Below, in pieces: positions 27-12,263 of a stretch of 12,263 nucleotides of DNA. Below the pieces are notes generated by a model. The model had not been told where the DNA came from. It was given only the letters and a program-made list of their open reading frames with translations, and searched no databases. The stretch is taken from positions 1-12,263 of the forward strand of contig JAFAFF010000087.1 of NCBI GenBank assembly GCA_023423605.1, written 5' to 3'. The stretch comes from Pseudomonadota bacterium (lineage in GTDB: Bacteria > Pseudomonadota > Gammaproteobacteria > Xanthomonadales > Xanthomonadaceae). Both the position numbers and the translations under genes were made by a program. Numbering within the stretch: the stretch's first letter is position 1; each line of letters starts with the position of its first letter.

Positions 27-941
<915 letters not shown>

Positions 942-1014: not shown

Positions 1015-3084
1015 ATGAGCCAACTGTCTCCCCTGCTGATCGAACTGGGCACCGAAGAACTGCCGGTGAAGGCGCTGCCGGGCCTGGCCCGGGCGTTCTT
1101 CGACGGTGTCGTCGAAGGCCTGCGCAGGCGCGGCGTGGAACTGGAACTGGGCGATGCCCATCCGCTGTCCACGCCGCGTCGCCTGGCCGTGCTGCTGCCC
1201 GGTGTCGGCATGCAGCAGCCGGAACAGCGCAGTGAAGTGCTGGGCCCGTACCTGAACATAGCGCTGGACGCCGACGGCCAGCCCACCAAGGCACTGCAGG
1301 GTTTTGCCGCCAAGGCCGGGATCGACTGGAGCGCGCTGGAAAGGACCACCGACAGCAAGGGCGAGCGTTTCGTCCACCGCGCCGTGAAACCAGGGGCGAG
1401 CACAGCCGACCTGCTGCCGGAGATCCTGCGCGAGGCCATCGCCGGCATGCCGATTCCCAAGCCGATGCGCTGGGGCGCGCACGCCTGGGGCTTCGCACGG
1501 CCGGTGCATTGGCTGGTGCTGCTGCACGGCACCGAGGTGGTGCCGGCCGAACTGTTCGGGTTGCAGGCCGGCCGCAGGACGCGCGGTCATCGCTTCCTGC
1601 ACGATCAGGAGATCCGCCTCGGCCAGGCGCAGGACTATCAGACGGCGCTGGAAGCGGCGTTCGTGCTGGTGGACCCGAAGGCGCGCCGCGAACGCATCGT
1701 CGCCGAAGTACAGGCCGCCGCCGCCAAGGCCGGTGGCCAGGCGCGCATCACCGATGACAATCTGGAACAGGTGGTGAACCTGGTCGAGTGGCCAGCGGCA
1801 GTCCTGTGCAGCTTCGAGCGCGACTTCCTGGCCGTGCCGCAGGAAGCGCTGATCGAAACGATGGAGATCAACCAGAAGTTCTTCCCGGTGCTGGATGGCG
1901 GTGGCACGCTGACCGAGAAGTTCATCGGCATCGCCAACATTGAATCGAAGGACGTGGCCGAAGTGGCCAAGGGCTACGAGCGGGTGATCCGCCCGCGTTT
2001 CGCCGATGCCCGGTTCTTCTTCGACGAAGACCTGAAGCAGGGCCTGCAGGCGATGGGTGATGGCCTGAAAACGGTGACCTACCAGGCGAAGCTGGGCAGT
2101 GTAGCCGACAAGGTGGCGCGCGTGGTGGCCCTGGCCGAGGTGATCGCGCCGCAGGTCGGTGCCGAGCCGTTGCTGGCCAAGCGTGCCGCGCAGCTGGCCA
2201 AGAACGATCTGCAATCGCGCATGGTCAACGAGTTCCCGGAACTGCAGGGCATCGCCGGGCGCCACTACGCGCAGGCGGCGGGTGAACCTGACGAGGTGGC
2301 ACTGGCCATCGATGAGGCGTACCAGCCGCGTTTCGGTGGCGATGACATCGCATTGTCGTCTCTGGGCAAGGTGCTGGCCATCGCCGAGCGCACCGACACC
2401 CTGGCCGGTGGCTTTGCCGCAGGCCTGAAGCCCACCGGCAACAAGGATCCGTTCGCGCTGCGTCGCAATGCATTGGGTCTGGCGCGCACCATCATCGAAA
2501 GCGGCTTCGATCTGGACCTGCGCGCGCTGCTTGCGCGGGCCAATGCCGCCCTGGCGCCGCGCGGCGTGCAGGCCGATGTGGGCGAACTCTACGATTTCAT
2601 TCTTGAACGCCTGCGTGGTTACTACGCCGACAAGGGCATACCGGCCGCATACTTCAACGCAGTGGCGGAGCTGAAACCCGCTTCGCTTTACGACTTCGAT
2701 CGTCGCCTTGACGCTATCGGCACCTTTGCCGCGCTGCCGGAAGCCCCGGCCCTTGCGGCGGCCAACAAGCGTATCGGCAACATCCTGCGCAAGGCCGATA
2801 TCGATATTCCCGGCCAGATCAACCCGGCGCTGCTGCAGGAAGAGGCCGAGCGCGCACTCGCCGAAGCCGTGGCCGCCGCCATCGAAGAAACCAGTGCCAG
2901 CCTGCAGCGCAAGGACTATGTCAGCGTGCTGGAGCGTCTCGCCCAGCTGCGTCCCCAGGTGGATGCGTTCTTCGACCAGGTGATGGTCAATGCCGATGAC
3001 CCGGCGGTACGTGCAAACCGCCTGGCGCTGCTGAAGCGGCTTGCCGATCGCTTCGACGCAGTGGCTTCACTGGCCCAGCTGTGA
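1015..3084 (+). CDS. glyS: Glycyl-tRNA synthetase beta subunit
   Basis: GlyS is the large tRNA-binding subunit partnering GlyQ in glycyl-tRNA synthetase; it recognises tRNA-Gly and carries HD-like and anticodon-binding domains. The reading frame is open from 859, but ATG 1015 is the supported start. It has an AGGA ribosome-binding site at 1003-1006, the standard beginning [17 protein letters not shown], and it yields 689 residues, the same as E. coli GlyS. Family-typical blocks visible are LGTEELP near residues 11-17, NKDPFALRR near 476-484 and [15 protein letters not shown] near 583-597, the last leading into the C-terminal anticodon-binding region. The 73-bp gap after glyQ is GC-rich with no terminator, so the two genes are likely cotranscribed. 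No terminator follows its stop at 3082-3084 either, and the next ORF begins 22 bp later, so readthrough into the T3SS operon is possible. Confidence 0.98.
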
Positions 3085-3106: not shown

Positions 3107-3193
3107 ATGACGTCGGCCTCCTTCGCAGCGCAACAAGATCGCAATTCGGCTCATAGCCCGAACCGTCGTGACGCAACACCATCTGCGTCATGA
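3107..3193 (+). CDS. Putative 28-residue leader peptide upstream of the InvF-like regulator
   Basis: This is a small ORF of 28 codons, beginning MTSASFAAQQ and ending ATPSAS. It starts at an ATG preceded by AGGGGA at 3098-3103 (about 4-6 nt spacing), a better ribosome-binding site than anything in front of the regulator. It ends at TGA 3191-3193, and the regulator ATG is at 3190-3192, a four-base ATGA overlap. The peptide is Ser/Ala/Arg rich, has no run of one amino acid of the kind used in classic attenuators, no membrane segment, and no family I recognise. Its likely role, if translated, is in cis: carrying ribosomes to the regulator start and opening the hairpin at 3164-3195. This is inferred from layout only. 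A chance ORF in a GC-rich spacer is the alternative. Confidence 0.5.
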   Translation: MTSASFAAQQDRNSAHSPNRRDATPSAS

Positions 3194-3195
3194 CG
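3164..3195 (+). promoter_or_regulatory. Hairpin sequestering the regulator start codon
   Basis: An inverted repeat pairs CGTCGTGACGCA (3164-3175) with TGCGTCATGACG (3184-3195). It is 12 pairs long, one of them G-U in RNA, with an 8-base loop (3176-3183). The regulator ATG (3190-3192) and the leader stop (3191-3193) both lie in the 3' arm. There is no U-run after the stem and coding sequence continues through it, so it is not an intrinsic terminator. In mRNA it would hide the regulator start unless a ribosome translating the leader melts it. It could instead be a dyad bound by a DNA-binding protein. The pairing is seen directly; the regulatory role is inference. Confidence 0.6.
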
Positions 3196-3945
3196 TACCG
3201 TGTACTTCTTTCCCAGGATTCACAGGAAGGCTCCGCCTTTTCCGTACTGCTGCCACGCGGCGAGTCGCTCCTGCTGGTGGCGGCCGATGAAGGTGGCGAG
3301 ATACAGGTAGGGACGGGCCAGAGGACCAGCCGACAGCGCCATGCCGTTGCGGGCGGGCACACGCTGCTCATCCTCGCCGGCACCCGTCCCGTGCAGGTCT
3401 GGAGCAACGGCTGCTGGGCCTGTCCAGCGGGCAGTGAATCCACTCGCCTGCTTGCCTTCCACGACCATGCGATGAACCTGCAGCGTCCGCTGCCGGAAGA
3501 CGGCCGGCTGCCGGTAACGCTGGAAGCGCCATGCGACCTGTCCGACCCCGTCGCCGCGCGCCAGTGGCTGACGGCGCAACTGCTTGACGAAGGTGCCGCT
3601 CTCCGCGTCGCAGCGTCGACATGGGCGGTCCGCGAGGCCTACCAGCTGGTACGGTTCGTCCTGGAACACCCCGAGATGGGCGTGCAGCAGCTGGCCGACC
3701 GGTATGGCCTGTCAGTGGCCCAGTTCCGCCGCATAGGGCGCAAGGCCTTCGGTCGCTCGCTCAAGGAGCAGCTGAGACTGCTGCGCGCCGGGCGCGTGCT
3801 GCACCGCTATGCCGATACCGGACACACCTTCACCCGCCTTTCCTCGGATTTCGGATTCTCCTCGCCCTCCCATTTCTGCAGCGAGATCAAGGCGCTGCTC
3901 GGTCGTTCACCCAGTTCGATCTTCCAGCAGGTGAACGCGCCGTGA
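3190..3945 (+). CDS. invF: AraC-family transcriptional regulator, InvF-like
   Basis: This is an AraC/XylS-type DNA-binding activator related to Salmonella InvF and Shigella MxiE, which with a translocator chaperone (SicA or IpgC) turn on effector and translocon genes. It has 251 residues. The C-terminal AraC domain holds two helix-turn-helix units, near residues 164-186 (LADRYGLSVAQFRRIGRKAF) and near 215-241 (DFGFSSPSHFCSEIKALLG). The SSPSHF.SEIK.L.G.SP stretch matches my memory of InvF closely. The N-terminal 150 residues have no recognisable ligand domain; they include a CWAC pair at Cys75 and Cys78. ATG 3190 is the only reasonable start, because an in-frame stop lies at 3169-3171 and the next Met is residue 95. 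It has no ribosome-binding site, overlaps the leader ORF by ATGA, and sits inside a hairpin, suggesting coupled translation. The end overlaps sctC by four bases. Assignment as invF rests on both sequence and gene order. Confidence 0.9.
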   Translation: MTYRVLLSQDSQEGSAFSVLLPRGESLLLVAADEGGEIQVGTGQRTSRQRHAVAGGHTLLILAGTRPVQVWSNGCWACPAGSESTRLLAFHDHAMNLQRPLPEDGRLPVTLEAPCDLSDPVAARQWLTAQLLDEGAALRVAASTWAVREAYQLVRFVLEHPEMGVQQLADRYGLSVAQFRRIGRKAFGRSLKEQLRLLRAGRVLHRYADTGHTFTRLSSDFGFSSPSHFCSEIKALLGRSPSSIFQQVNAP

Positions 3946-5657
3946 TCTCCAGACTGTCCGTACCTGCCGCGCTCGTCCTGCTCCTCGGCACGTGGCCCGG
4001 CGCCGTGCATGCGCAGGACGATGCCGCCGCCACGGCGCCGCTCGAAAACACGGCCGTTGCCCACCGCGGCACCCTGTCGCCGGAAAGCACCTTCGTGTCC
4101 CGTGGTGATGGTGTCGGACTGCTGCTGCAGGCAATTGCCGCGCGGATGCAACAACCGGTAATCGTCAGTCCGAAGGCACAGAAGAAGCGCGTGGAAGGCA
4201 GCTTCGGGCTGCGCGATCCGCACACCGTGCTGGAGCAGCTCGCGCGCGATCTGGGCATGGTCTGGTACACCGACGGACAGGCCCTGTACGTCTACGATGC
4301 CAGCGAAATCCGTAATGCCGTAGGGCACATGCAGCACGCCTCCATAGCCGTGCTCAATGATTTCCTGAGGCGAGCGCGTCTCGCCGACACACGTTACGCC
4401 CTGCGCGGCGGCAGTGCGGAAGGTACGTTCTATGTCTCTGGACCGCCAGTCTATGTAGAGATCGTCATCAATGCCGCGCGCTATCTTGATGAGCTCTATC
4501 GTGGCGCCGATGCACGCGCCGAGCACGTGGACGTCATAGCCCTGCGCAACAGCTTCGCACAGGGCCGGCGTTATGGCGTGCGTGGCTGGGAGACCACGTT
4601 GCCCGGCATGGCCGAATCGCTGGCCCGCGTGCTGAGCGACTCAGGCGTCACCGACATCATCGTGCGTCGGACAGCAACGGACGAAGCCTCCGTGGCGCAA
4701 GGCAGCGACCTCGCCAACACCATCGATCCGATGTCCACCCGTGCTGCCGCCCTGGGTGCCGACGTCCGACGCAACAGTGCGCCGCCGGCACTGCCGCCCA
4801 CCATCGTCATCGCCTATCCGGAGACGAACAGCCTGATCGTTCGCGGGACACTGGGCGGGATACAGAAAGTGAGGCAGCTGGTGGCCGAGCTTGATCTCGC
4901 ACGAAAACAGGTTGAGCTGTCGCTATGGATCATCGATGTGCACAAGACCGAGCTGGATGCGCTGGGTGTCAAGTGGTCCGGCGAGGTCGGGGTGTCCGGG
5001 CGCCTGGGCATCGGCTTCAACGGCGGATCCTCGACGCTGGATGGTGAACGGTTTCTTGCCTCCGTAACGGCACTTTCCGAACGCGGCCACGCCAGCATCG
5101 TGTCGCGCCCCGTGCTGCTGACGCAGGAAAACGTCATGGCCCACTTCGACAGCAACAGCACCTTCTATGCGCGCCTGGAGGCCGAACGCACGGCATCGCT
5201 GGAGTCCGTCACCTACGGCACGCTGGTGAGCGTGCTGCCGCGGGTATCGGCCGACGACGAAGTCGAGATGCAACTGCGCATCGAGGACGGCACCTCCAGT
5301 GGCAAGGAGGTGGAGGGGCTTCCTGTCATCAATCGGACAACCATCGATACAGTCGCAAGGGTCCCACATCGACTCAGCCTGCTGGTGGGTGGTTATACGC
5401 GACAGGAACAGTCACGTGACCGCAGCGATATTCCTTGGCTGCATCGCATCCCCCTGCTGGGTGGGCTGTTCCGCCATCGAAACGATCGCAGCCATGAGCT
5501 GGTACGCGTCTTCCTGATACAGCCTCGTGTACGCGACGCGCAGGAGCCGACGGCCGATGCCGGCTTCCATCCGCTGGACACGCTCGATCGGTCCTTGCCG
5601 GTGCATTACCAGCGGCTCAACGACACCGTGCGGGAGGCGATCGATGCTGTCCATTGA
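3942..5657 (+). CDS. sctC: Type III secretion outer-membrane secretin (InvG-like)
   Basis: SctC forms the outer-membrane ring through which the needle passes. The start is GTG 3942, overlapping the regulator stop as GTGA, with AGGTGA at 3929-3934 as ribosome-binding site. This start gives a clean signal peptide: MISR, hydrophobic core about residues 8-19, and predicted cleavage after AVHA (residue 24). The mature protein has an N0-like domain (about 45-120), N1 and N3 ring-building domains (about 125-200 and 200-325), and a secretin barrel domain (about 328-530). The barrel contains RPVLLTQEN and the signature SDIPWLHRIPLLGGLF near 495-510. Total length is 571 residues (InvG about 562). The final ~40 residues end in a helix-prone stretch (LNDTVREAIDAV), where InvG-type secretins bind their pilotin. 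The frame is open further upstream to 3621, but that part overlaps the regulator and lacks secretin features, so it is not used. Confidence 0.95.
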   Translation: MISRLSVPAALVLLLGTWPGAVHAQDDAAATAPLENTAVAHRGTLSPESTFVSRGDGVGLLLQAIAARMQQPVIVSPKAQKKRVEGSFGLRDPHTVLEQLARDLGMVWYTDGQALYVYDASEIRNAVGHMQHASIAVLNDFLRRARLADTRYALRGGSAEGTFYVSGPPVYVEIVINAARYLDELYRGADARAEHVDVIALRNSFAQGRRYGVRGWETTLPGMAESLARVLSDSGVTDIIVRRTATDEASVAQGSDLANTIDPMSTRAAALGADVRRNSAPPALPPTIVIAYPETNSLIVRGTLGGIQKVRQLVAELDLARKQVELSLWIIDVHKTELDALGVKWSGEVGVSGRLGIGFNGGSSTLDGERFLASVTALSERGHASIVSRPVLLTQENVMAHFDSNSTFYARLEAERTASLESVTYGTLVSVLPRVSADDEVEMQLRIEDGTSSGKEVEGLPVINRTTIDTVARVPHRLSLLVGGYTRQEQSRDRSDIPWLHRIPLLGGLFRHRNDRSHELVRVFLIQPRVRDAQEPTADAGFHPLDTLDRSLPVHYQRLNDTVREAIDAVH

Positions 5658-6759
5658 TACCTCCGCTGCCCGCGCTGCCGTCCAGCGGCAGCAGACCCGG
5701 CAGGCCGCCGAAACGTTGCAGGCTGAAGGCGACGACGTCCCGGTACAGCAGGCGGCGTTGCGCAAGACGGCACTGCATCAGGCCTTCGAGCTCAACGACG
5801 ATCTTTCGGGGCTGCTGTCGAGCCTCCGCCGAAGCCGTGCGAGGGAGCCTGACGGCGGTGACGTACGCGAGCAGGCATGGCTCGATCACGTCCTGGAGCC
5901 GAAGGGGCCGGAAAAAGCGTCTGCGCTTCGCCTTCAGCTCCAGCAACAGGCCTCGCACGGCATCGCCGCCCTGCGAACGTTGGTGATGCAGCTGTTTCCC
6001 GATGCCAGCGATGCAGTCGCAGTGCTGAAGGCCCTGATGTCCGAAGCCGAGCTGTCGGAGATACGCGAGACGCTGGCGGAACTGCACGATGAACTCATCG
6101 GCCAACCCGATGCGGATGGCCGCGGCGTCCGTGCAGGACTGAACATCGCGTTGAAGGCACGCCTGCACGCACCGCCGTTGCAGGCGACGGCAGTGCAGCT
6201 GAGACATACCTATCGGGAATTCCTGGCGGGCGGCGAGCCGCTGGATGCCTATGAACAATGGATCGAGGTCTATGGCTTTGAACGACGGACCCAGGTCGTG
6301 GCGTTCATCGAGCAGGCACTGGCCGCAGACATGTACGCGCTGGATCCCAGCTGCACACGGATCGAATTCGGTATGCTCCTGCAACGCGTGCGCCAGCTCA
6401 CCACGCTGCGTTCAGCCGATACCCTGTTGATCAGCCATTGCTGGCATCCGGCGCTGATGTCCCGGATCGGTGTGGACCAGCCGATGCTGCTGGGTGCCCT
6501 GCTCAGGATGATACGCCACGGTGGCGGGCTCGCCGAGCTGATCGCCGGGATGTTCGGTGGCATGCGCTTCGCGCTGGACATGAGGGAGAAGCGACTGTTC
6601 GCGCACGGTATCCGTCGGTTCCTGAAAGCGCTTCCCCACGGCCTGTGGCAGGACGCTGGCCTGCAGCTGCAGGTGGAGGACGAAGTCGATGCCGTGCTTG
6701 ATCGCATCCTTGCACACGAGCGCGGCCAGGCGACCGGCGAGCGCTGGGTAGCCGTCTGA
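5644..6759 (+). CDS. sctW: Type III secretion gatekeeper (InvE/MxiC/YopN-TyeA family)
   Basis: This is the cytosolic gatekeeper that binds the export gate and chaperones, lets translocators go first and blocks effectors until host contact. ATG 5644 has a strong GGGAGG at 5632-5637 and overlaps the secretin end by 14 bases. The resulting 371 residues match InvE (about 372), that is, YopN-like and TyeA-like parts in one chain. A disordered, Gln/Ala-rich N-terminus (about 1-40) is followed by an HrpJ-type helical region (about 45-200). Next comes a conserved stretch REFLAGGEPLDAYEQWIEVY near 191-210, then ALAADMYALDPSC, and then a TyeA-like helical region (about 285-365). The N-terminus has no cleavable signal, as expected for a T3SS substrate-like protein. 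It sits between secretin and export gate as invE does in SPI-1. Confidence 0.9.
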   Translation: MLSIDTSAARAAVQRQQTRQAAETLQAEGDDVPVQQAALRKTALHQAFELNDDLSGLLSSLRRSRAREPDGGDVREQAWLDHVLEPKGPEKASALRLQLQQQASHGIAALRTLVMQLFPDASDAVAVLKALMSEAELSEIRETLAELHDELIGQPDADGRGVRAGLNIALKARLHAPPLQATAVQLRHTYREFLAGGEPLDAYEQWIEVYGFERRTQVVAFIEQALAADMYALDPSCTRIEFGMLLQRVRQLTTLRSADTLLISHCWHPALMSRIGVDQPMLLGALLRMIRHGGGLAELIAGMFGGMRFALDMREKRLFAHGIRRFLKALPHGLWQDAGLQLQVEDEVDAVLDRILAHERGQATGERWVAV

Positions 6760-8828
6760 TGAACACCGTGAACTCATCCGCCTACGGCCTTCCGCAACTG
6801 GCCAGGGGGCTGCTGCGCCCCGAGCTGGCACTGATCATCCTGATGGCGGTCATCATCGGCATGCTGATCGTGCCGCTGCCGACGTTCCTCGTCGACCTGC
6901 TGATCGCGCTGAACCTGCTCATCGCCATCGTGATATTCCTGAGCTCGTTCTACGTCGAACGGATCCTGAATTTCTCCACCTTTCCCTCGGTGCTGCTGTT
7001 CACCACGCTGATGCGACTTGCGCTGTCGGTGAGCACCAGTCGGCTGATCCTGGTGGATGCCGACGCCGGGCATATCGTGTCGGCCTTTGGTGAATTCGTC
7101 GTCGCCGACAACCTGGTGGTCGGATTCGTGATCTTCGCGATCGTCACCATCGTGCAGTTCATTGTCATCACGAAGGGCTCCGAACGCATCGGTGAGGTGG
7201 TGGCACGCTTCTCGCTGGATGGCATGCCCGGCAAGCAGATGGGCATCGATGCCGATCTGCGAGCGGAATCCATCAACGCGGCAACAGCACAGAAGCGGCG
7301 CCGTGACGTGGAGAAGGAAAGCCAGCTCTACGGTTCCTATGACGGTGCGATGAAATTCGTGAAAGGCGATGCCATTGCCGGCATCGTCATCGTGTTCGTC
7401 AATCTGTTTGGTGGCATCGCCGTGGGCATGCTCCAGCATGGCATGGCGTTCACCGAAGCGCTGCAGGTGTTCACCCTGCTCACCATCGGTGATGGCCTGG
7501 TTGCCCAGATCCCTGCCCTGCTGATCTGCATCAGCGCCGGCTTCGTGGTTACCCGGGTAGGTGGTGAGGAAGGCAACCTGGGTGCCAGCATCATTGGCGA
7601 GCTCTTCAGCAGCCAGAAGGTGCTGGTCATTGCCGGCGGGCTGCTGCTGCTGGTGGGCGTGCTGCCGGGCTTTCCGCTCGTGGTATTCGCCCTTCTGGCG
7701 ACGGCCCTGTTCGGCCTGGCGGCCTGGCGCGCACGTCATGGCGTCGCTACTGCTGCTGCCGATGCGGACGGCGTGTCCTCGCCTGACGCAACCGGTACCA
7801 CGCAACCCGGTGCTGCAGACGATAGCGACACAAGACAGGTCAACGAGACCGTACCCCTGCTGCTGTTGCTCCCACCTGCCCATCATCACCAATGGCCTGC
7901 TGCCACTCTCGAAAGGGAGCTCAGGCAGATGCTGCATCTGCGCGCCGGAATGCGCCTGCCGTACATGATGACGCGCCGCCATGTACAGAGTGACCATCGC
8001 GTAACCGTGTTGATCAACGAGATCGTCGCGGCCAGTGCGGACATTCCGTTGGACCATGTCCGCGTGCTGGCCGACAGCGATGAACTGGCCGCGCTGGGGC
8101 AGGGACTTCAGTTGCCGGCATCGCGTGGCGGGCAGGCGTACTGGATGCCCGCCTCGATGCAGGCGCAGGTGCATGCAATGGGCCTGGTCACCCGATCGGA
8201 CCGGGAAGAGATGTATGCGCTCGTGCACGAAGCATTGATGCGAAACATCGGAGAGCTGTTCGGCATCCAGGAGACCAAGCATCTGCTGGATGAAACAGAA
8301 AAACGGTTTCCCGAGCTGCTCAAGGAGGTACATCGGCACAGCCCGGTACAGCGCGTAGCCGAAGTGCTGCAGCGACTGCAGCGCGAGGGCGTGTCCATCC
8401 GCAACATGAAGATCATCCTGGAAACGCTGGCGCAATGGGGTCAGCGCGAGAAGGACGTCATCCTGCTGGTGGAGCATGTCAGGGCCGGACTGGCGCGCTA
8501 CATCTCATCCCAGCATGCACGCGACGGCCGTATCGCGGCGGTGCTTCTGGCACCGGATACCGAGGAAGTGGTGCGCTCGGGCATCCGCCAGAGCCAGGGC
8601 GCGGCCTTCTTCAACCTGGATCCGGCCATGGCCGACCGCCTGCTGGATCGCCTTTCGCTCGCGCTTGAGCCACTCCTGGTTCACCGGCCGGAAACCGTCC
8701 TGCTGGTGGCTCCGGACATCCGCCGGTTCGTCAAGCGCTTTGTCGAAAGCCGCCTGCCGGCCTTGGCGGTGCTGTCCTTCTCCGAGATTTCGGAAGCCGT
8801 TTCCCTTGATGTCGTGAGATCACTATGA
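6759..8828 (+). CDS. sctV: Type III secretion export gate, major membrane component (InvA-like)
   Basis: SctV is the inner-membrane FHIPEP-family protein whose cytosolic domains form a nonameric ring at the export gate, docking chaperone-substrate complexes. It has 689 residues (InvA about 685). The N-terminal half has about seven or eight hydrophobic segments (roughly 22-40, 43-62, 70-90, 110-137, 205-225, 238-265, 288-323). The FHIPEP signature at about 143-166 reads RIGEVVARFSLDGMPGKQMG and continues IDAD; Val148 sits where the family usually has a small residue. A disordered linker (about 325-352) leads to the cytosolic domain (about 355-689), which ends ALAVLSFSEISEAVSLDVV, very like InvA. 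The start ATG 6759 shares one base with the sctW stop (TGATG). It has no obvious ribosome-binding site, so coupling is likely. It is a T3SS SctV rather than flagellar FlhA because it lies between secretin, gatekeeper and chaperone genes. Confidence 0.97.
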   Translation: MNTVNSSAYGLPQLARGLLRPELALIILMAVIIGMLIVPLPTFLVDLLIALNLLIAIVIFLSSFYVERILNFSTFPSVLLFTTLMRLALSVSTSRLILVDADAGHIVSAFGEFVVADNLVVGFVIFAIVTIVQFIVITKGSERIGEVVARFSLDGMPGKQMGIDADLRAESINAATAQKRRRDVEKESQLYGSYDGAMKFVKGDAIAGIVIVFVNLFGGIAVGMLQHGMAFTEALQVFTLLTIGDGLVAQIPALLICISAGFVVTRVGGEEGNLGASIIGELFSSQKVLVIAGGLLLLVGVLPGFPLVVFALLATALFGLAAWRARHGVATAAADADGVSSPDATGTTQPGAADDSDTRQVNETVPLLLLLPPAHHHQWPAATLERELRQMLHLRAGMRLPYMMTRRHVQSDHRVTVLINEIVAASADIPLDHVRVLADSDELAALGQGLQLPASRGGQAYWMPASMQAQVHAMGLVTRSDREEMYALVHEALMRNIGELFGIQETKHLLDETEKRFPELLKEVHRHSPVQRVAEVLQRLQREGVSIRNMKIILETLAQWGQREKDVILLVEHVRAGLARYISSQHARDGRIAAVLLAPDTEEVVRSGIRQSQGAAFFNLDPAMADRLLDRLSLALEPLLVHRPETVLLVAPDIRRFVKRFVESRLPALAVLSFSEISEAVSLDVVRSL

Positions 8829-9208
8829 CCTTGAAAGAGACCCTGTGCCAGGCACTGGAGGTGCTGGGCGCGGATTCGCGCTCCTACGAATTCGACGATC
8901 ATTCCACCATCGTCATGTCCTTCGACGACGTCGGCGATATCTACCTGGACCCGCAGGACAACGGAAAGGTCTGGCTCTGGGGCCTGCTCGAGGAAATGAG
9001 CGAGCAGGCGCGGGCAGCAATATCCGAAGCCCTGCTCGCCGAGCTCGTACGCAGCACGCCCTATTGGGATGGAGGAGCGATGCTGCTTCGTGACGATGGA
9101 AGGGTGGGCGGTCTGCTGCATCCGGACGCCGTCGAGCGGCCGGAGGCGATGGCCGAGGCACTGCAGGACTTCCATCAGAGCATGACACGCCTGCGAGCCC
9201 TGAGATGA
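8825..9208 (+). CDS. invB: Class IB type III secretion chaperone (InvB/Spa15-like)
   Basis: This is a small acidic cytosolic protein of 127 residues with the alpha/beta layout of class I T3SS chaperones. It has an N-terminal helix (about 3-15), strands around 20-50 including FDDHSTIVMSF and DIYL, a long helix (about 55-75), strands (about 78-97), and a C-terminal helix (about 100-125). The DHSTIV block and the W.W.L..M segment resemble Salmonella InvB (about 135 residues) from memory. Class IB chaperones serve several effectors; InvB binds SipA and SopE-type proteins and targets them to the export gate and ATPase. It overlaps both neighbours by ATGA, and its place between export gate and ATPase is the invA-invB-invC position. 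No cognate effector gene is next to it, which fits a multi-effector chaperone. The family is clear from size, acidity and position; its substrates cannot be told from here. Confidence 0.85.
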   Translation: MTLKETLCQALEVLGADSRSYEFDDHSTIVMSFDDVGDIYLDPQDNGKVWLWGLLEEMSEQARAAISEALLAELVRSTPYWDGGAMLLRDDGRVGGLLHPDAVERPEAMAEALQDFHQSMTRLRALR

Positions 9209-10497
9209 GGATGTTGCGCTCGCTCTGGCGTCCAGCGGCCCATCCCGCTGCCATTGTCGGTTCCATGCTGCGTGTACCGCTTGCGGATGTGGCGATAGGC
9301 GACACGTGTATTCTGCAGGAGGGCACTCATGGCGATGGAATGGTAGGCCAGGGTACCGTGGTGGCAGTGGACCATGGCATGGCGTCGCTGGGCCTGCTGC
9401 GTGACAGCGCGGGGCTCTCGCCGGGCTGTCTGGTGTTTCCGACGGGTGCGGCACCGACGATACAGGCCTCCGTCCGGATGCTGGGCAGCGTGCTGGATGG
9501 CCAGGGCAAGGAGGTGGAACGCCTGGCCCCTGCGGTGGAAGCGTTCAACGAACCGCGTGCGCTCCGCCAGCAGGCGGTGGACTATCGCCAGCGTCGCATG
9601 ATCAACACCCCACTCTGCACCGGCATCCGTGCCATCGATGCGCTGCTCACCTGCGGCGAAGGGCAGCGGATAGGCATCTTCGCTGGTGCAGGTGCCGGCA
9701 AGACGACCCTGTCCGAGATGCTTCTGGACAATGCCGACGTGGACGTCAGCGTGGTCGCGCTCATCGGTGAACGCGGGCGTGAGGTGGCCACCCTGGTGGA
9801 ACGGCTCCGTCATTCCTCCCATGCCGCGCGGATGGTGGTGGTGCAGGCCACCAGTGATACCGCGCCGGCCCTGCGCAGCCAGGCGGCACTGGTGGCGACC
9901 ACCATTGCCGAGTACTTCCGCGACAAGGGCGCACGGGTACTGCTGATCATGGACTCGGTTACCCGCTACGCGCGTGCGCTGCGCGAGCTCGCACTCGGTG
10001 CCGGAGAGCCGCCCGCGCGGCGTGGGTATCCGGCTTCGGTCTTCGAGAACCTGCCGCGGCTGGTCGAACGAAGCGGTCGGACCGCGGCAGGCAGCATCAC
10101 CGCTTTCCATACCGTTCTTCTTGAAGACGAACAGGACGCCGATCCCATCGGTGAGGAAATCAAATCCCTGCTGGATGGCCATCTGTACCTGAGCAGCCAA
10201 CTGGCGGGACGTGGGCATTACCCGGCGCTGGATATCCTGAAAAGCGGCAGCCGCCTGTTCGCGCAGCTGGCGGACGCGCACCAGCAGCGATCCGCCGTAC
10301 GTATACGCAGCCTGCTGGGAACGCTGGAAGACCTTCAGCTCATGCGCGACCTTGGCGAGTACAAGCCGGGCGTGAGTGCTGTGTACGACAAGGCGATTGC
10401 CTGCGAACCGGCGCTGCGGGAATTCCTGCGCCAGGACACGCACGAACGCAGTGAGCTGCAGCAGACGATGAGGCAGTTGCATGAACTCGCGCGCTGA
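9205..10497 (+). CDS. sctN: Type III secretion ATPase (InvC-like)
   Basis: SctN is the hexameric ATPase at the base of the injectisome, related to F1-ATPase beta and FliI; it strips chaperones and helps unfold substrates. It has 430 residues (InvC about 431). Visible motifs are Walker A GAGAGKTT at 161-168, the catalytic glutamate in LIGERGRE (Glu189), Walker B VLLIMD at 245-250, and the arginine-finger region YPALDILKSGSR, with Arg350 the candidate finger. The N-terminal ~80 residues form the oligomerisation domain and the C-terminal ~70 residues the helical substrate and chaperone-binding part. The start ATG 9205 overlaps the chaperone stop by ATGA; an alternative ATG lies at 9211, with no better ribosome-binding site. 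All catalytic residues look intact. It is a T3SS rather than flagellar ATPase by context and by the SctO-type gene that follows. Confidence 0.97.
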   Translation: MRMLRSLWRPAAHPAAIVGSMLRVPLADVAIGDTCILQEGTHGDGMVGQGTVVAVDHGMASLGLLRDSAGLSPGCLVFPTGAAPTIQASVRMLGSVLDGQGKEVERLAPAVEAFNEPRALRQQAVDYRQRRMINTPLCTGIRAIDALLTCGEGQRIGIFAGAGAGKTTLSEMLLDNADVDVSVVALIGERGREVATLVERLRHSSHAARMVVVQATSDTAPALRSQAALVATTIAEYFRDKGARVLLIMDSVTRYARALRELALGAGEPPARRGYPASVFENLPRLVERSGRTAAGSITAFHTVLLEDEQDADPIGEEIKSLLDGHLYLSSQLAGRGHYPALDILKSGSRLFAQLADAHQQRSAVRIRSLLGTLEDLQLMRDLGEYKPGVSAVYDKAIACEPALREFLRQDTHERSELQQTMRQLHELAR

Positions 10498-10948
10498 ACG
10501 CCAGGGGCCACGCATGCTGCGCCTCAAGCAGGCGCAGGCCCAGCTTGCACTGGCTTCCGCACATGACCGGCAGCAGGCCGCGCAGGCGCGCAGCGTGGAG
10601 GCGGAGTGGCTCCGTCGCTCCGCGGCCGACACCCTGGAGCAGGCGTTGATGCAACCCGAGCAGGGGCTCACGCGCAACGCCCTATTCGACCGGCTGCGGG
10701 CGGTTGCGGTTTCGCGAGCGCACGCGCTTGAGGCGCGCCATGCCGCCAGCGAGCTGGAGCACCGCGCACGGCAGCTCCAGCAGCAGAACGTCGAGCTGCT
10801 CGCGTTGGCGTCGGCCTGCCAGCGTAAACAACAGAAGCTGGAGCACTGGCAATCGCGCCGCATCGCCGAAGCAGCCCGACGGCGCGAGCGCCACCGACAG
10901 ATCCAGGAACAGGAGGACTTTCCATGTCATCGCCGATTCACGCCCTGA
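10481..10948 (+). CDS. sctO: Type III secretion stalk protein (InvI/YscO/FliJ-like)
   Basis: SctO is a coiled-coil stalk that sits in the SctN hexamer and contacts the SctV ring, analogous to FliJ and the F1 gamma subunit. The protein is 155 residues, almost wholly helical, rich in Gln, Ala, Arg and Glu, with heptad-like spacing across about 15-65 and 75-150. The segment NALFDRLRAVAVSRAHALE resembles the InvI region around its conserved Leu-Arg and Val-Arg-Arg residues. Two starts are possible. ATG 10481 has GAGG at 10470-10473 and overlaps sctN by 17 bases. ATG 10514 (M12) has a stronger AGGGG at 10503-10507, gives 144 residues and begins MLRLKQAQAQ, closer in length to InvI (about 147). The longer form is reported here, but the shorter is equally plausible. 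The family is fast-evolving, so the call leans on position, length and coiled-coil character. Confidence 0.85.
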   Translation: MNSRAERQGPRMLRLKQAQAQLALASAHDRQQAAQARSVEAEWLRRSAADTLEQALMQPEQGLTRNALFDRLRAVAVSRAHALEARHAASELEHRARQLQQQNVELLALASACQRKQQKLEHWQSRRIAEAARRRERHRQIQEQEDFPCHRRFTP

Positions 10949-12087
10949 GCGCCGCTACGTTGCTGACCGACAGGCCAGAGGCACGGGCTGCCACAATCGA
11001 GCTGGCCGAACGTGCCGAGGCCGCCCGGCATCGGGGCGACAGCGAGCGAGACGGAGACGTTGCACAGGATCTTTCCGAGCTGTTTTCTGGTGACGGATTG
11101 ATCATCGCTGGACGTCGTCCGATGCATGTTGCCAGCGTGCCGGCAGCGGATGCCAACGGGATGATGAAGATGCGTGCTGCCCGGCCGCAGGATGCCGGTA
11201 CGGCCACAGCAGCGGTAATCCGGCAGCCGGGCCATGCGCAGGATTTTCCTGGTATCGCATCCTCACAGGATGCCTCTGCGTTCGAAGCACCGGAGCGACG
11301 GGCCGCATCAGCGCGATCGGTGGCGGAAAACGGCCATCCACCCGCTGGACGGTCTTCATCACACGCCGTCTCGACAGGGCAGGACGCAGGCGCCGTGCAT
11401 GCCGGAGTGACGACGACCGCAGGACCCGGGTCCGCGGCTGCAGTCGGTACGCGTCTTGCTCGACCGCGGACGGTGGCCACCGGCACGGATCCTCTGCAAC
11501 GAGCATCCACTTCGACGCCCTCAACGCTGGCGCCGTCCGTGTCGTCCGTGCCGTCCCTACTCTCCAGCCAGCATCCCGGACTGGCCGTCGGCCACCAGCC
11601 AGAGACGCCGCCGCCGGTGATTGCCGACGCCGATGGCCTCATGCCGGCCGACGCCGGGTCAGGGCACCTGGCGGCGGTCCTGCTGCCGGAGCAGCGTGTC
11701 TCCGACGGACAGCATCCGCACGCCGGGGCGCCGGACCACGCGCGTGCCAGCAGCCATCTGCGCGCAGCGGCAACGGCCACTCGGACAACAGAATTCATGA
11801 CGGAACGCGCGCGCGACAACGTGGCCAGCGTGACCGTGCCCTTCACCCGCTGGGGCCCGGAGCATCAGGTGACCGCCAGCTGGGCTCCCGGGCAGGTGCC
11901 CGGGGAACCCGGACAGACCGTGACGTTGCGCACCAGCAGTACGCCGGTTGCCGAAGCCGTCGAGGCAGCCCTGGAGTCGTTCTCCGCCCACGCGAAAGCG
12001 GACTGGAAGATACAGTCCGCCGATGCGCAGGACGATCGGCACGCGCGGCGTGGACGGCACCGTCACCGGCATGAGGATGATCAATGA
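10924..12087 (+). CDS. sctP: Type III secretion needle-length regulator (InvJ/Spa32-like)
   Basis: SctP is a secreted protein that controls needle length and the switch from needle to translocator export. It has 387 residues. A textbook ribosome-binding site AGGAGGA at 10911-10917, six bases before ATG 10924, fixes the start and overlaps sctO by 25 bases. Residues 1-60 are partly helical; about 60-290 are low-complexity and disordered, rich in Ala, Ser, Pro, Gly and Thr. A folded C-terminal part (about 300-357) carries TVPFTRWGPEHQVTASW and STPVAEAVEAALESF, matching the InvJ pattern of F.RWG followed by polar strands (T3S4-like domain). The tail (371-387) is Arg/His rich, with HRHRHEDDQ at the end. 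It is about 50 residues longer than Salmonella InvJ (about 336), mostly in the disordered part. It lacks Cys. Identification rests on the C-terminal motif and on position between SctO and SctQ. Confidence 0.85.
   Translation: MSSPIHALSAATLLTDRPEARAATIELAERAEAARHRGDSERDGDVAQDLSELFSGDGLIIAGRRPMHVASVPAADANGMMKMRAARPQDAGTATAAVIRQPGHAQDFPGIASSQDASAFEAPERRAASARSVAENGHPPAGRSSSHAVSTGQDAGAVHAGVTTTAGPGSAAAVGTRLARPRTVATGTDPLQRASTSTPSTLAPSVSSVPSLLSSQHPGLAVGHQPETPPPVIADADGLMPADAGSGHLAAVLLPEQRVSDGQHPHAGAPDHARASSHLRAAATATRTTEFMTERARDNVASVTVPFTRWGPEHQVTASWAPGQVPGEPGQTVTLRTSSTPVAEAVEAALESFSAHAKADWKIQSADAQDDRHARRGRHRHRHEDDQ
11887..11904. repeat. Short perfect palindrome inside sctP
   Basis: CCCGGGCA (11887-11894) and TGCCCGGG (11897-11904) are perfect inverted copies separated by GG, within the SctP codons for the PGQVPG stretch. 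In RNA it could form a GC-rich hairpin of about seven pairs with a four-base loop. There is no U-run and it lies inside a gene, so it is not an ordinary terminator. It may be chance from GC-rich Pro/Gly codons. Confidence 0.4.
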
Positions 12088-12263
12088 GTCCGCGTTTCAC
12101 GATGTTGGCGCGACCGGATCATCGCGAACTGGAATGCCAGACGCTGGCCCGGCAACTCGCGGCACACGGCATCGAAGCGCCGCTGCGTCCGCTTCCGCCG
12201 GTCGCCTGCCTGCGCTTCCGGCTGAACCGACCTGGCGGAACCGCGATCTGCAGGGTGGAGGCA
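12084..12263 (+). CDS. sctQ: Type III secretion sorting-platform protein, N-terminal part (SpaO-like), cut by window end
   Basis: The first 60 codons of an ORF that continues past the window begin MSPRFTMLAR. ATG 12084 overlaps the sctP stop by ATGA and has GAGG at 12073-12076, seven bases upstream. In SPI-1 the gene after invJ is spaO, which encodes the cytosolic sorting-platform scaffold that binds the ATPase complex and chaperone-effector pairs. The visible part shows an N-terminal helix (about 12-30) and then LRFRLNRPGG, a strand-like segment plausibly matching the start of the SpaO fold. The C-terminal SPOA domains that would prove the family lie outside the window. The call therefore rests mostly on gene order. 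Confidence 0.75.
   Translation, partial: MSPRFTMLARPDHRELECQTLARQLAAHGIEAPLRPLPPVACLRFRLNRPGGTAICRVEA

What the first reader, a model, noticed from the sequence alone, without database searches (positions are those of the whole stretch)
3190..12263. Inv/Mxi-Spa (SPI-1) family injectisome next to a xanthomonad-type glyQS locus
The nine gene products follow the Salmonella invF-G-E-A-B-C-I-J-spaO order exactly, and most have near-identical lengths. Xanthomonads are known mainly for Hrp2 T3SS, and many Stenotrophomonas lack a T3SS; X. albilineans is a known SPI-1-type exception. If the host placement is right, this is an uncommon injectisome whose host target (plant, insect, amoeba or animal) is open.
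Basis: partly seen in the sequence, partly recalled or inferred. Interest (0 to 1): 0.7.

Follow-up and report, generated by a model that had tools for sequence, protein, structure and literature searches.

The report
Salmonella-type injection machine in Stenotrophomonas
A bacterium of the genus Stenotrophomonas carries the front half of a gene set for a needle-like protein injector of the kind best known from Salmonella, at the same chromosomal spot as in its close relatives; the machine type is known, but its presence here is little described and its target is unknown.

Summary
Window 3190-12263 encodes invF-G-E-A-B-C-I-J and the start of spaO in Salmonella SPI-1 order, right after glyQS. 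SctV, SctN and SctC fall in the SPI-1 (Inv/Mxi-Spa) group, inside a Stenotrophomonas-only clade. glyS places the host as a separate branch of a clade with S. tumulicola, S. pennii, strain 169 and unnamed G015. In these four relatives the island sits between glyS and tamA, which are neighbours in six genomes examined with an empty slot; it continues there as a nearly full SPI-1 set of about 25 kb. It looks intact in three and is gutted by two deletions in G015. In the genus, 14 of 91 held genomes carry a SPI-1 secretin. Low dN/dS argues that the genes work. New here: a 50-bp conserved element ending on the invF start codon, present only in this clade among the loci scanned, and a fast-evolving uncharacterised protein in the sipA slot of relatives. 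The strain 169 T3SS is in print (PMC8245107), without the term SPI-1. New member of a known kind.

The parts
27..941 (+). glyQ, glycyl-tRNA synthetase alpha; chromosomal anchor left of the island
   Evidence: TIGR00388 529 bits; 95% to S. tumulicola and S. pennii
1015..3084 (+). glyS, glycyl-tRNA synthetase beta; the island starts right behind it
   Evidence: TIGR00211 793 bits; tree placement
3141..3158 (+). conserved non-coding element GCAATTCGGCTCATAGCC, 5' part of a likely invF control region
   Evidence: conserved in 5 of 5 glyS-linked genomes while the rest of the intergenic stretch is not; at 0 mismatches found only at invF in the 7 genomes searched; absent at invF of the 11 other Stenotrophomonas systems
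3169..3190 (.). perfect inverted repeat TGACGCA-N8-TGCGTCA ending on the A of the invF start codon; likely operator of a dimeric regulator (or hairpin over the start codon)
   Evidence: (1 match, 0.09 expected at up to 2 mismatches)
3190..3945 (+). invF, AraC-family activator
   Evidence: PF12833 over cut-off, PRK15340 below cut-off
3942..5657 (+). invG / sctC, outer-membrane secretin ring
   Evidence: TIGR02516, PF21304; best PDB match InvG 434 bits
5644..6759 (+). invE / sctW, gatekeeper
   Evidence: TIGR02568 over cut-off, PRK15338 below cut-off
6759..8828 (+). invA / sctV, export gate
   Evidence: PRK15337 over cut-off; tree
8825..9208 (+). invB, secretion chaperone (SpaK family)
   Evidence: PF03519 over cut-off; PDB 2fm8 SpaK E 2.3e-6
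9205..10497 (+). invC / sctN, export ATPase
   Evidence: PRK08149 540 bits (below cut-off 594), PF00006, PF18269; tree
10481..10948 (+). invI / spaM / sctO, ATPase stalk
   Evidence: PF02090 below threshold; 45-47% to relatives at the same place
10924..12087 (+). invJ / spaN / sctP, needle-length ruler and substrate switch
   Evidence: PF02510 just under cut-off; C-terminal motif VPF...GP.H.VTA.W shared by 5 of 5 aligned
12084..12263 (+). spaO / sctQ, first 60 residues; runs off the window
   Evidence: 32-42% to the relatives' spaO, which in S. pennii carries PF01052

Best explanation
The window holds the left half of a chromosomal island for a working SPI-1 (Inv/Mxi-Spa) type III secretion injectisome in an unnamed Stenotrophomonas species, inserted between glyS and (by relatives) tamA, most simply before its small clade split. 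InvF, whose promoter region carries a dedicated element, switches the operon on; the SctV gate, SctN ATPase, SctO stalk and SctQ pods feed substrates through the SctC secretin ring and a needle; SctP measures the needle; SctW holds back effectors until contact; InvB chaperones at least one effector. Shown here: gene content, order, family, open frames, purifying selection, conserved site, right half in relatives. Inferred from the known family: assembly, regulation by InvF, injection into eukaryotic cells. The target is not known; my guess is protist grazers or plant cells, because strain 169 is a poplar endophyte and an environmental SPI-1 system protects P. fluorescens from amoebae (PMC3921676, passages).
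For: Families and domains; SctV, SctN and SctC trees with the Stenotrophomonas clade 100* and the window subclade 99* in each; glyS clade 100/100*; the same left junction in the window and 4 of 4 relatives, tamA on the right in 4 of 4 relatives, empty glyS-tamA slot in 6 genomes; S. pennii carries SctR and SctU, TPR chaperone, SipB-like translocator, tip protein, PrgH, needle, rod, PrgK and a weak OrgB match, with SctS and SctT by position and length; dN/dS window against relatives 0.14-0.41 for invF-invI.
Against: The window ends in spaO, so its own needle, translocon and effectors are not seen. The island is gutted in the relative G015, so it can be dispensable. InvI, InvJ, InvC and InvF score below curated cut-offs, as do SctU, the needle, rod and OrgB models in S. 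pennii. No invH pilotin lies before invF (not searched elsewhere), and no hilA between iagB and prgH in S. pennii. S. pennii is, from memory, a chicken isolate, which does not favour a plant or protist target. No secretion or host data exist.
Confidence: 0.9

Rival explanations
1. The island is a relic under decay: frames still open in the window but the machine no longer works, as in G015.
For: G015 at the same site lost invG, invE, most of invA, most of invC, and invI, invJ, spaO with the start of spaP.
Against: All complete window genes are open, and dN/dS for invF-invI is 0.14-0.41 over 126-689 codons against relatives with dS 0.9-1.5 (invJ not tested); 3 of 4 relatives show no break in the genes examined.
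Confidence: 0.07
2. The system belongs to another T3SS family (Hrp2, Ysc, SPI-2) or is flagellar, and only looks SPI-1-like in order.
For: InvC, InvF, InvI and InvJ miss curated cut-offs; the best full-length PDB match of SctV is a low calcium response protein (523 bits) and then SsaV (455), but InvA is held there only as its C-terminal domain (278), so these are not comparable.
Against: PF21304 83.6 bits against 27-35 bits for the weaker xanthomonad secretins; SctV PRK15337 over cut-off, FlhA model 338 bits lower; trees.
Confidence: 0.01
3. The Stenotrophomonas and X. albilineans-type SPI-1 systems descend from one acquisition by a xanthomonad ancestor rather than separate gains.
For: AU test does not reject one clade (p 0.239).
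Against: The best trees keep them apart; tamA/tamB and glyS were not found in the regions fetched around G307, G451; 77 of 91 genus genomes have no match over cut-off.
Confidence: 0.2

Closest known systems
T3SS of Stenotrophomonas sp. 169 (PMC8245107; = G072 by identical InvE and equal contig length)
   Same: Same genus clade, same glyS site, same gene order; SctV 81% identical
   Different: The paper listed sctC,J,R,S,T,U,V,Q,N by likeness to the Rhizobium NGR234 system; 'SPI-1' occurs 0 times in its main text. The window is a separate, deeper species lineage.
Salmonella SPI-1 (Inv-Spa-Prg)
   Same: Order invF-G-E-A-B-C-I-J-spaO, and in relatives spaPQRS-sicA-sipB-(sipC slot)-sipD-(sipA slot)-acp-iagB-prgHIJK-orgB; Salmonella order recalled
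   Different: No invH before invF; no room for hilA or sicP-sptP between acp, iagB and prgH in S. pennii; the protein in the sipA slot has no detectable SipA sequence likeness; SctV 63% (N half) and 40% (C half) to S. enterica subsp. arizonae
SPI-1 T3SS of Xanthomonas albilineans (PMC2810307, passages read)
   Same: SPI-1 family, xanthomonad host
   Different: If G307 is this species: SctV 47% identical, own long branch; kinship unresolved
SPI-1 T3SS of Pseudomonas fluorescens F113 and 2P24 (PMC3921676 passages; PMC8490769 search listing only)
   Same: Environmental SPI-1 system; in F113 it helps avoid amoeba grazing
   Different: The Pseudomonas rows form a different subclade (these two strains were not in the trees)

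Membership tests
SPI-1 (Inv/Mxi-Spa) T3SS | SctV groups with InvA | tested here: met
   PRK15337 908 > 800; tree
SPI-1 (Inv/Mxi-Spa) T3SS | Secretin with SPI-1-type N0 domain | tested here: met
   PF21304 83.6 > 27; InvG 434 and MxiD 384 bits, next T3SS hit EscC 22; tree
SPI-1 (Inv/Mxi-Spa) T3SS | SctN groups with InvC | tested here: met
   Tree; best T3SS model PRK08149 540 bits, though under its cut-off 594
SPI-1 (Inv/Mxi-Spa) T3SS | Gene order invF-G-E-A-B-C-I-J-spaO | tested here: met
SPI-1 (Inv/Mxi-Spa) T3SS | SpaM (InvI) and SpaN (InvJ) families | tested here: inconclusive
   24.7 vs 35 and 24.5 vs 24.8 bits; conserved C-terminus of InvJ
SPI-1 (Inv/Mxi-Spa) T3SS | PrgH-type ring, PrgI needle, PrgK, SctR-U, translocon | not testable with these tools
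   Beyond the window's end; present in S. pennii: PF09480 159 bits, PF09392 54, PF01514 48, PF04888 73, PF16535 45, PF06511 27.6 vs 25; SctR over cut-off, SctU, needle and rod models matched below cut-off
SPI-1 (Inv/Mxi-Spa) T3SS | Contact-dependent injection into eukaryotic cells | not testable with these tools
   Needs experiment
Hrp2 T3SS of Xanthomonas | SctC in the Hrp2 clade, hrp gene order | tested here: not met
   SctC far from the three weak-N0 xanthomonad secretins in the tree, which I take as Hrp2-like by inference; gene order is the inv-spa one
X. albilineans SPI-1 lineage | One clade with the Stenotrophomonas systems | tested here: inconclusive
   AU p 0.239; G307 not named by the tool

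The most novel reading that the evidence does not exclude
Stenotrophomonas harbours its own branch of SPI-1 injectisomes, in one clade gained at the glyS-tamA site before that clade split, run from a clade-specific single-copy promoter element at invF, and delivering a genus-restricted effector family (a helical domain plus a long disordered tail, sipA slot) that diverges even faster than the tip and translocon because it faces varied eukaryotic partners such as protists or plants.
Probability: 0.4. Interest if true: 0.55.

Novelty: new member of a known kind. Interest (0 to 1): 0.38.

Why it matters
S. maltophilia K279a and RR-10 and S. rhizophila DSM 14405 are cited as lacking a T3SS (PMC8245107, passages). 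A SPI-1-type injector kept under selection in a Stenotrophomonas clade that includes a poplar endophyte gives a simple system in which to ask what SPI-1 machines do outside animal pathogens, and a same-site decayed relative (G015) for comparison.

Tried and rejected
Mosaic contig L058/G005: its SctV fragment looked 80% like the window while invF/G/E were 41-54%. Rejected: the second-group systems compared (G060, G055, G031, G003) are also 78-80% in the SctV N half. Extra SctV-like hits in G003, G008, G009, G020, G060 as a second injectisome: rejected for the two scanned (G009, G003), which score best on FlhA (767 and 771 bits, just under cut-off 772; hrcV 578 and 576, cut-off 692); the other three were not scanned. 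The 27-35 bit PF21304 hits among 395 family genomes as SPI-1 systems: not counted as such; only 8 of the 32 genomes over cut-off exceed 50 bits.

invF element as a regulon-wide motif: rejected, no exact copy away from invF in 7 genomes, and inexact ones at the rate of the reversed-pattern control. As an RNA family: no Rfam match in the window. As an RNA hairpin: 12-bp stem, z -2.39, 4 of 200 shuffles fold as well, but the outer pairs are not kept in relatives while the loop and the 18-bp part are, so I prefer a DNA operator; no formal pair count was run.

Print search: in the seven searches I judged by titles and abstract starts and opened five papers for passages; only PMC8245107 described a Stenotrophomonas T3SS, and none of the passages I saw named SPI-1 in Stenotrophomonas. 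Subscription journals are mostly not held.
Full report
Observation. The window carries glyQ (27-941), glyS (1015-3084) and then, on the same strand with overlapping or nearly touching ends, invF, invG, invE, invA, invB, invC, invI, invJ and the first 60 residues of spaO. NCBIfam and Pfam support them as detailed in the observation check. Against solved structures, the secretin matches InvG (434 bits) and MxiD (384) and then drops to PilQ (60) and EscC (22); the ATPase's best matches are two chains named only 'Type 3 secretion system ATPase' (399), then 373, with SpaL/MxiB at 331 and EscN 298; the best full-length SctV matches are a 'low calcium response protein' (523 bits) and SsaV (455), and Salmonella InvA is present only as its C-terminal domain (278), so that search does not rank the families. 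GC content is about 59-72% throughout, with no step at the junction, and the window has no tRNA gene.

Host. No genome is held for the window. The one genome-contig scan kept 80 loci of 570 relatives; the nearest full SctV are S. pennii (80%) and S. tumulicola (78%). glyS DNA from 36 of the 91 held genus genomes, the window and three outgroups puts the window in a 100/100 clade with S. tumulicola, G072, G015 and S. pennii, as sister to the other four (98/89). By GlyS protein identity these four also rank first of all 91 (87-88%, next 86%). The window is thus a separate lineage of Stenotrophomonas.

Family. Trees of SctV (59 rows, all chosen ones used), SctN (47 of 50 chosen) and SctC (46 of 55 chosen; short or absent rows dropped) agree: the window with G072, S. 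pennii, S. tumulicola and G033 (99*), then the Stenotrophomonas systems used together (100*), inside the group (100*) that holds Salmonella, Pseudomonas, Erwinia and Chromobacterium SPI-1 systems. These are quick searches with long branches flagged. G307 and G451, the other xanthomonad systems, branch apart, but a careful 29-row SctV tree does not reject their union with Stenotrophomonas (p-AU 0.239); kinship with the X. albilineans type stays open. G296, a further strong hit, groups with Oxalobacteraceae systems.

Distribution. PF21304 is over its cut-off in 14 of 91 held genomes of the genus, plus one below cut-off. In the family, 32 of 395 sampled are over cut-off, but only 8 exceed 50 bits: five Stenotrophomonas, G296, G307 and G451.

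Site and completeness. In G038, G023, G044, G066, G003 and at the glyS of G033, tamA begins about 190-290 bases after glyS. In G072, S. tumulicola and S. pennii about 25 kb lies between them and reads: invF to spaO, spaPQRS, TPR chaperone, SipB-like translocator, a sipC-slot protein (no Pfam match in the piece scanned), tip protein, a sipA-slot protein, acyl carrier protein, lytic transglycosylase, PrgH, needle, rod, PrgK, (orgA position, untested), OrgB (weak), a small protein, then tamA-tamB (domains scanned in S. pennii, the other two by likeness to it). In G010, G005 and G007 other DNA of about 4.6-7.8 kb lies between glyS and tamA, so the slot varies elsewhere too. G033 has the window's subtype at another locus and an empty glyS slot, which suggests transfer within the genus. 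G015 keeps both borders and the right part through orgB, but lost invG, invE and most of invA in one deletion, and most of invC through the start of spaP in another.

Function and selection. dN/dS for window against relatives is 0.14-0.23 for SctV, SctC, SctN and InvB, 0.24-0.35 for InvF and InvE, and 0.39-0.41 for InvI; glyQS 0.06-0.15 (invJ and spaO not tested). Among G072, S. pennii and S. tumulicola, flanking genes have dS 0.52-0.79 and the island genes mostly 0.7-1.6 (sipA slot up to 2.0), so the island evolves faster or exchanges more than its flanks. Protein identity falls from SctR (84-94%) to SipB (43-59%), tip (33-41%) and sipA slot (26-33%): the parts that would touch the host diverge most. 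The sipA-slot family has 13 matches in 5.8 billion proteins (the 7998 best candidates were scored); the two with names are Stenotrophomonas.

Control element. Between glyS and invF the five glyS-linked genomes share only about the last 50 bases: GCAATTCGGCTCATAGCC (15 of 18 columns invariant) and, ten bases on, TGACGCA-N8-TGCGTCA (19 of 22 invariant), whose last base is the A of the invF ATG. In 7 genomes searched, exact copies occur only at invF (strain 169 has one mismatch in the repeat and S. tumulicola three in the first part); inexact ones elsewhere are about as frequent as in the reversed-pattern control (6 against 7 for the first part, 5 sites against 5 for the repeat). Of the 14 genus genomes with a SPI-1 secretin, only the 3 glyS-linked ones have it at invF; the other 11 have no match there at up to 4 and 2 mismatches, and neither do the empty sites read. 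I take it as the operator of a dimeric regulator, perhaps InvF itself, which is not shown.

Literature. PMC8245107 (passages) reports type III genes sctC,J,R,S,T,U,V,Q,N in strain 169 and contrasts them with S. maltophilia and S. rhizophila strains that lack a T3SS. PMC2810307 (passages) describes the X. albilineans SPI-1 system. PMC3921676 (passages) reviews SPI-1 roles in insects, amoebae and plants. PMC5003817 and PMC11035887 (passages) added nothing on Stenotrophomonas SPI-1 in the passages seen. That S. pennii comes from chicken is recalled, not looked up.

Verdict. A real, apparently working SPI-1 injectisome in Stenotrophomonas: a new member of a known kind, with a promoter element that I have not seen described and an unknown target.

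Noticed in passing
window 3141-3190: Conserved 18-bp element plus perfect inverted repeat ending on the invF start codon, found only in the glyS-linked clade among the loci scanned.
   Followed up: partly
L162 4564-6761 (G015:C116): Same-site island gutted by two deletions (invG-invE-invA and invC-spaP) while spaQ to orgB and both borders remain.
   Followed up: yes
L161 2034-3884 and relatives: Uncharacterised protein of about 470-630 aa in the sipA slot: confident helical domain, long low-confidence tail; the named matches are Stenotrophomonas.
   Followed up: partly
L163/L164 (G033:C1:340000-378000): Island of the window's subtype at a different chromosomal place, with an empty glyS-tamA slot in the same genome.
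   Followed up: no
L204-L207 (G009, G003, G008, G020): Extra FlhA/SctV-like genes on a long branch: probably second flagellar-type export systems in some Stenotrophomonas (two of the genes scanned).
   Followed up: partly
P0005, P0053: SctW relatives labelled Xanthomonas sp. 60 (59%) and a Dyella MAG (42%): related systems under other genus names.
   Followed up: no
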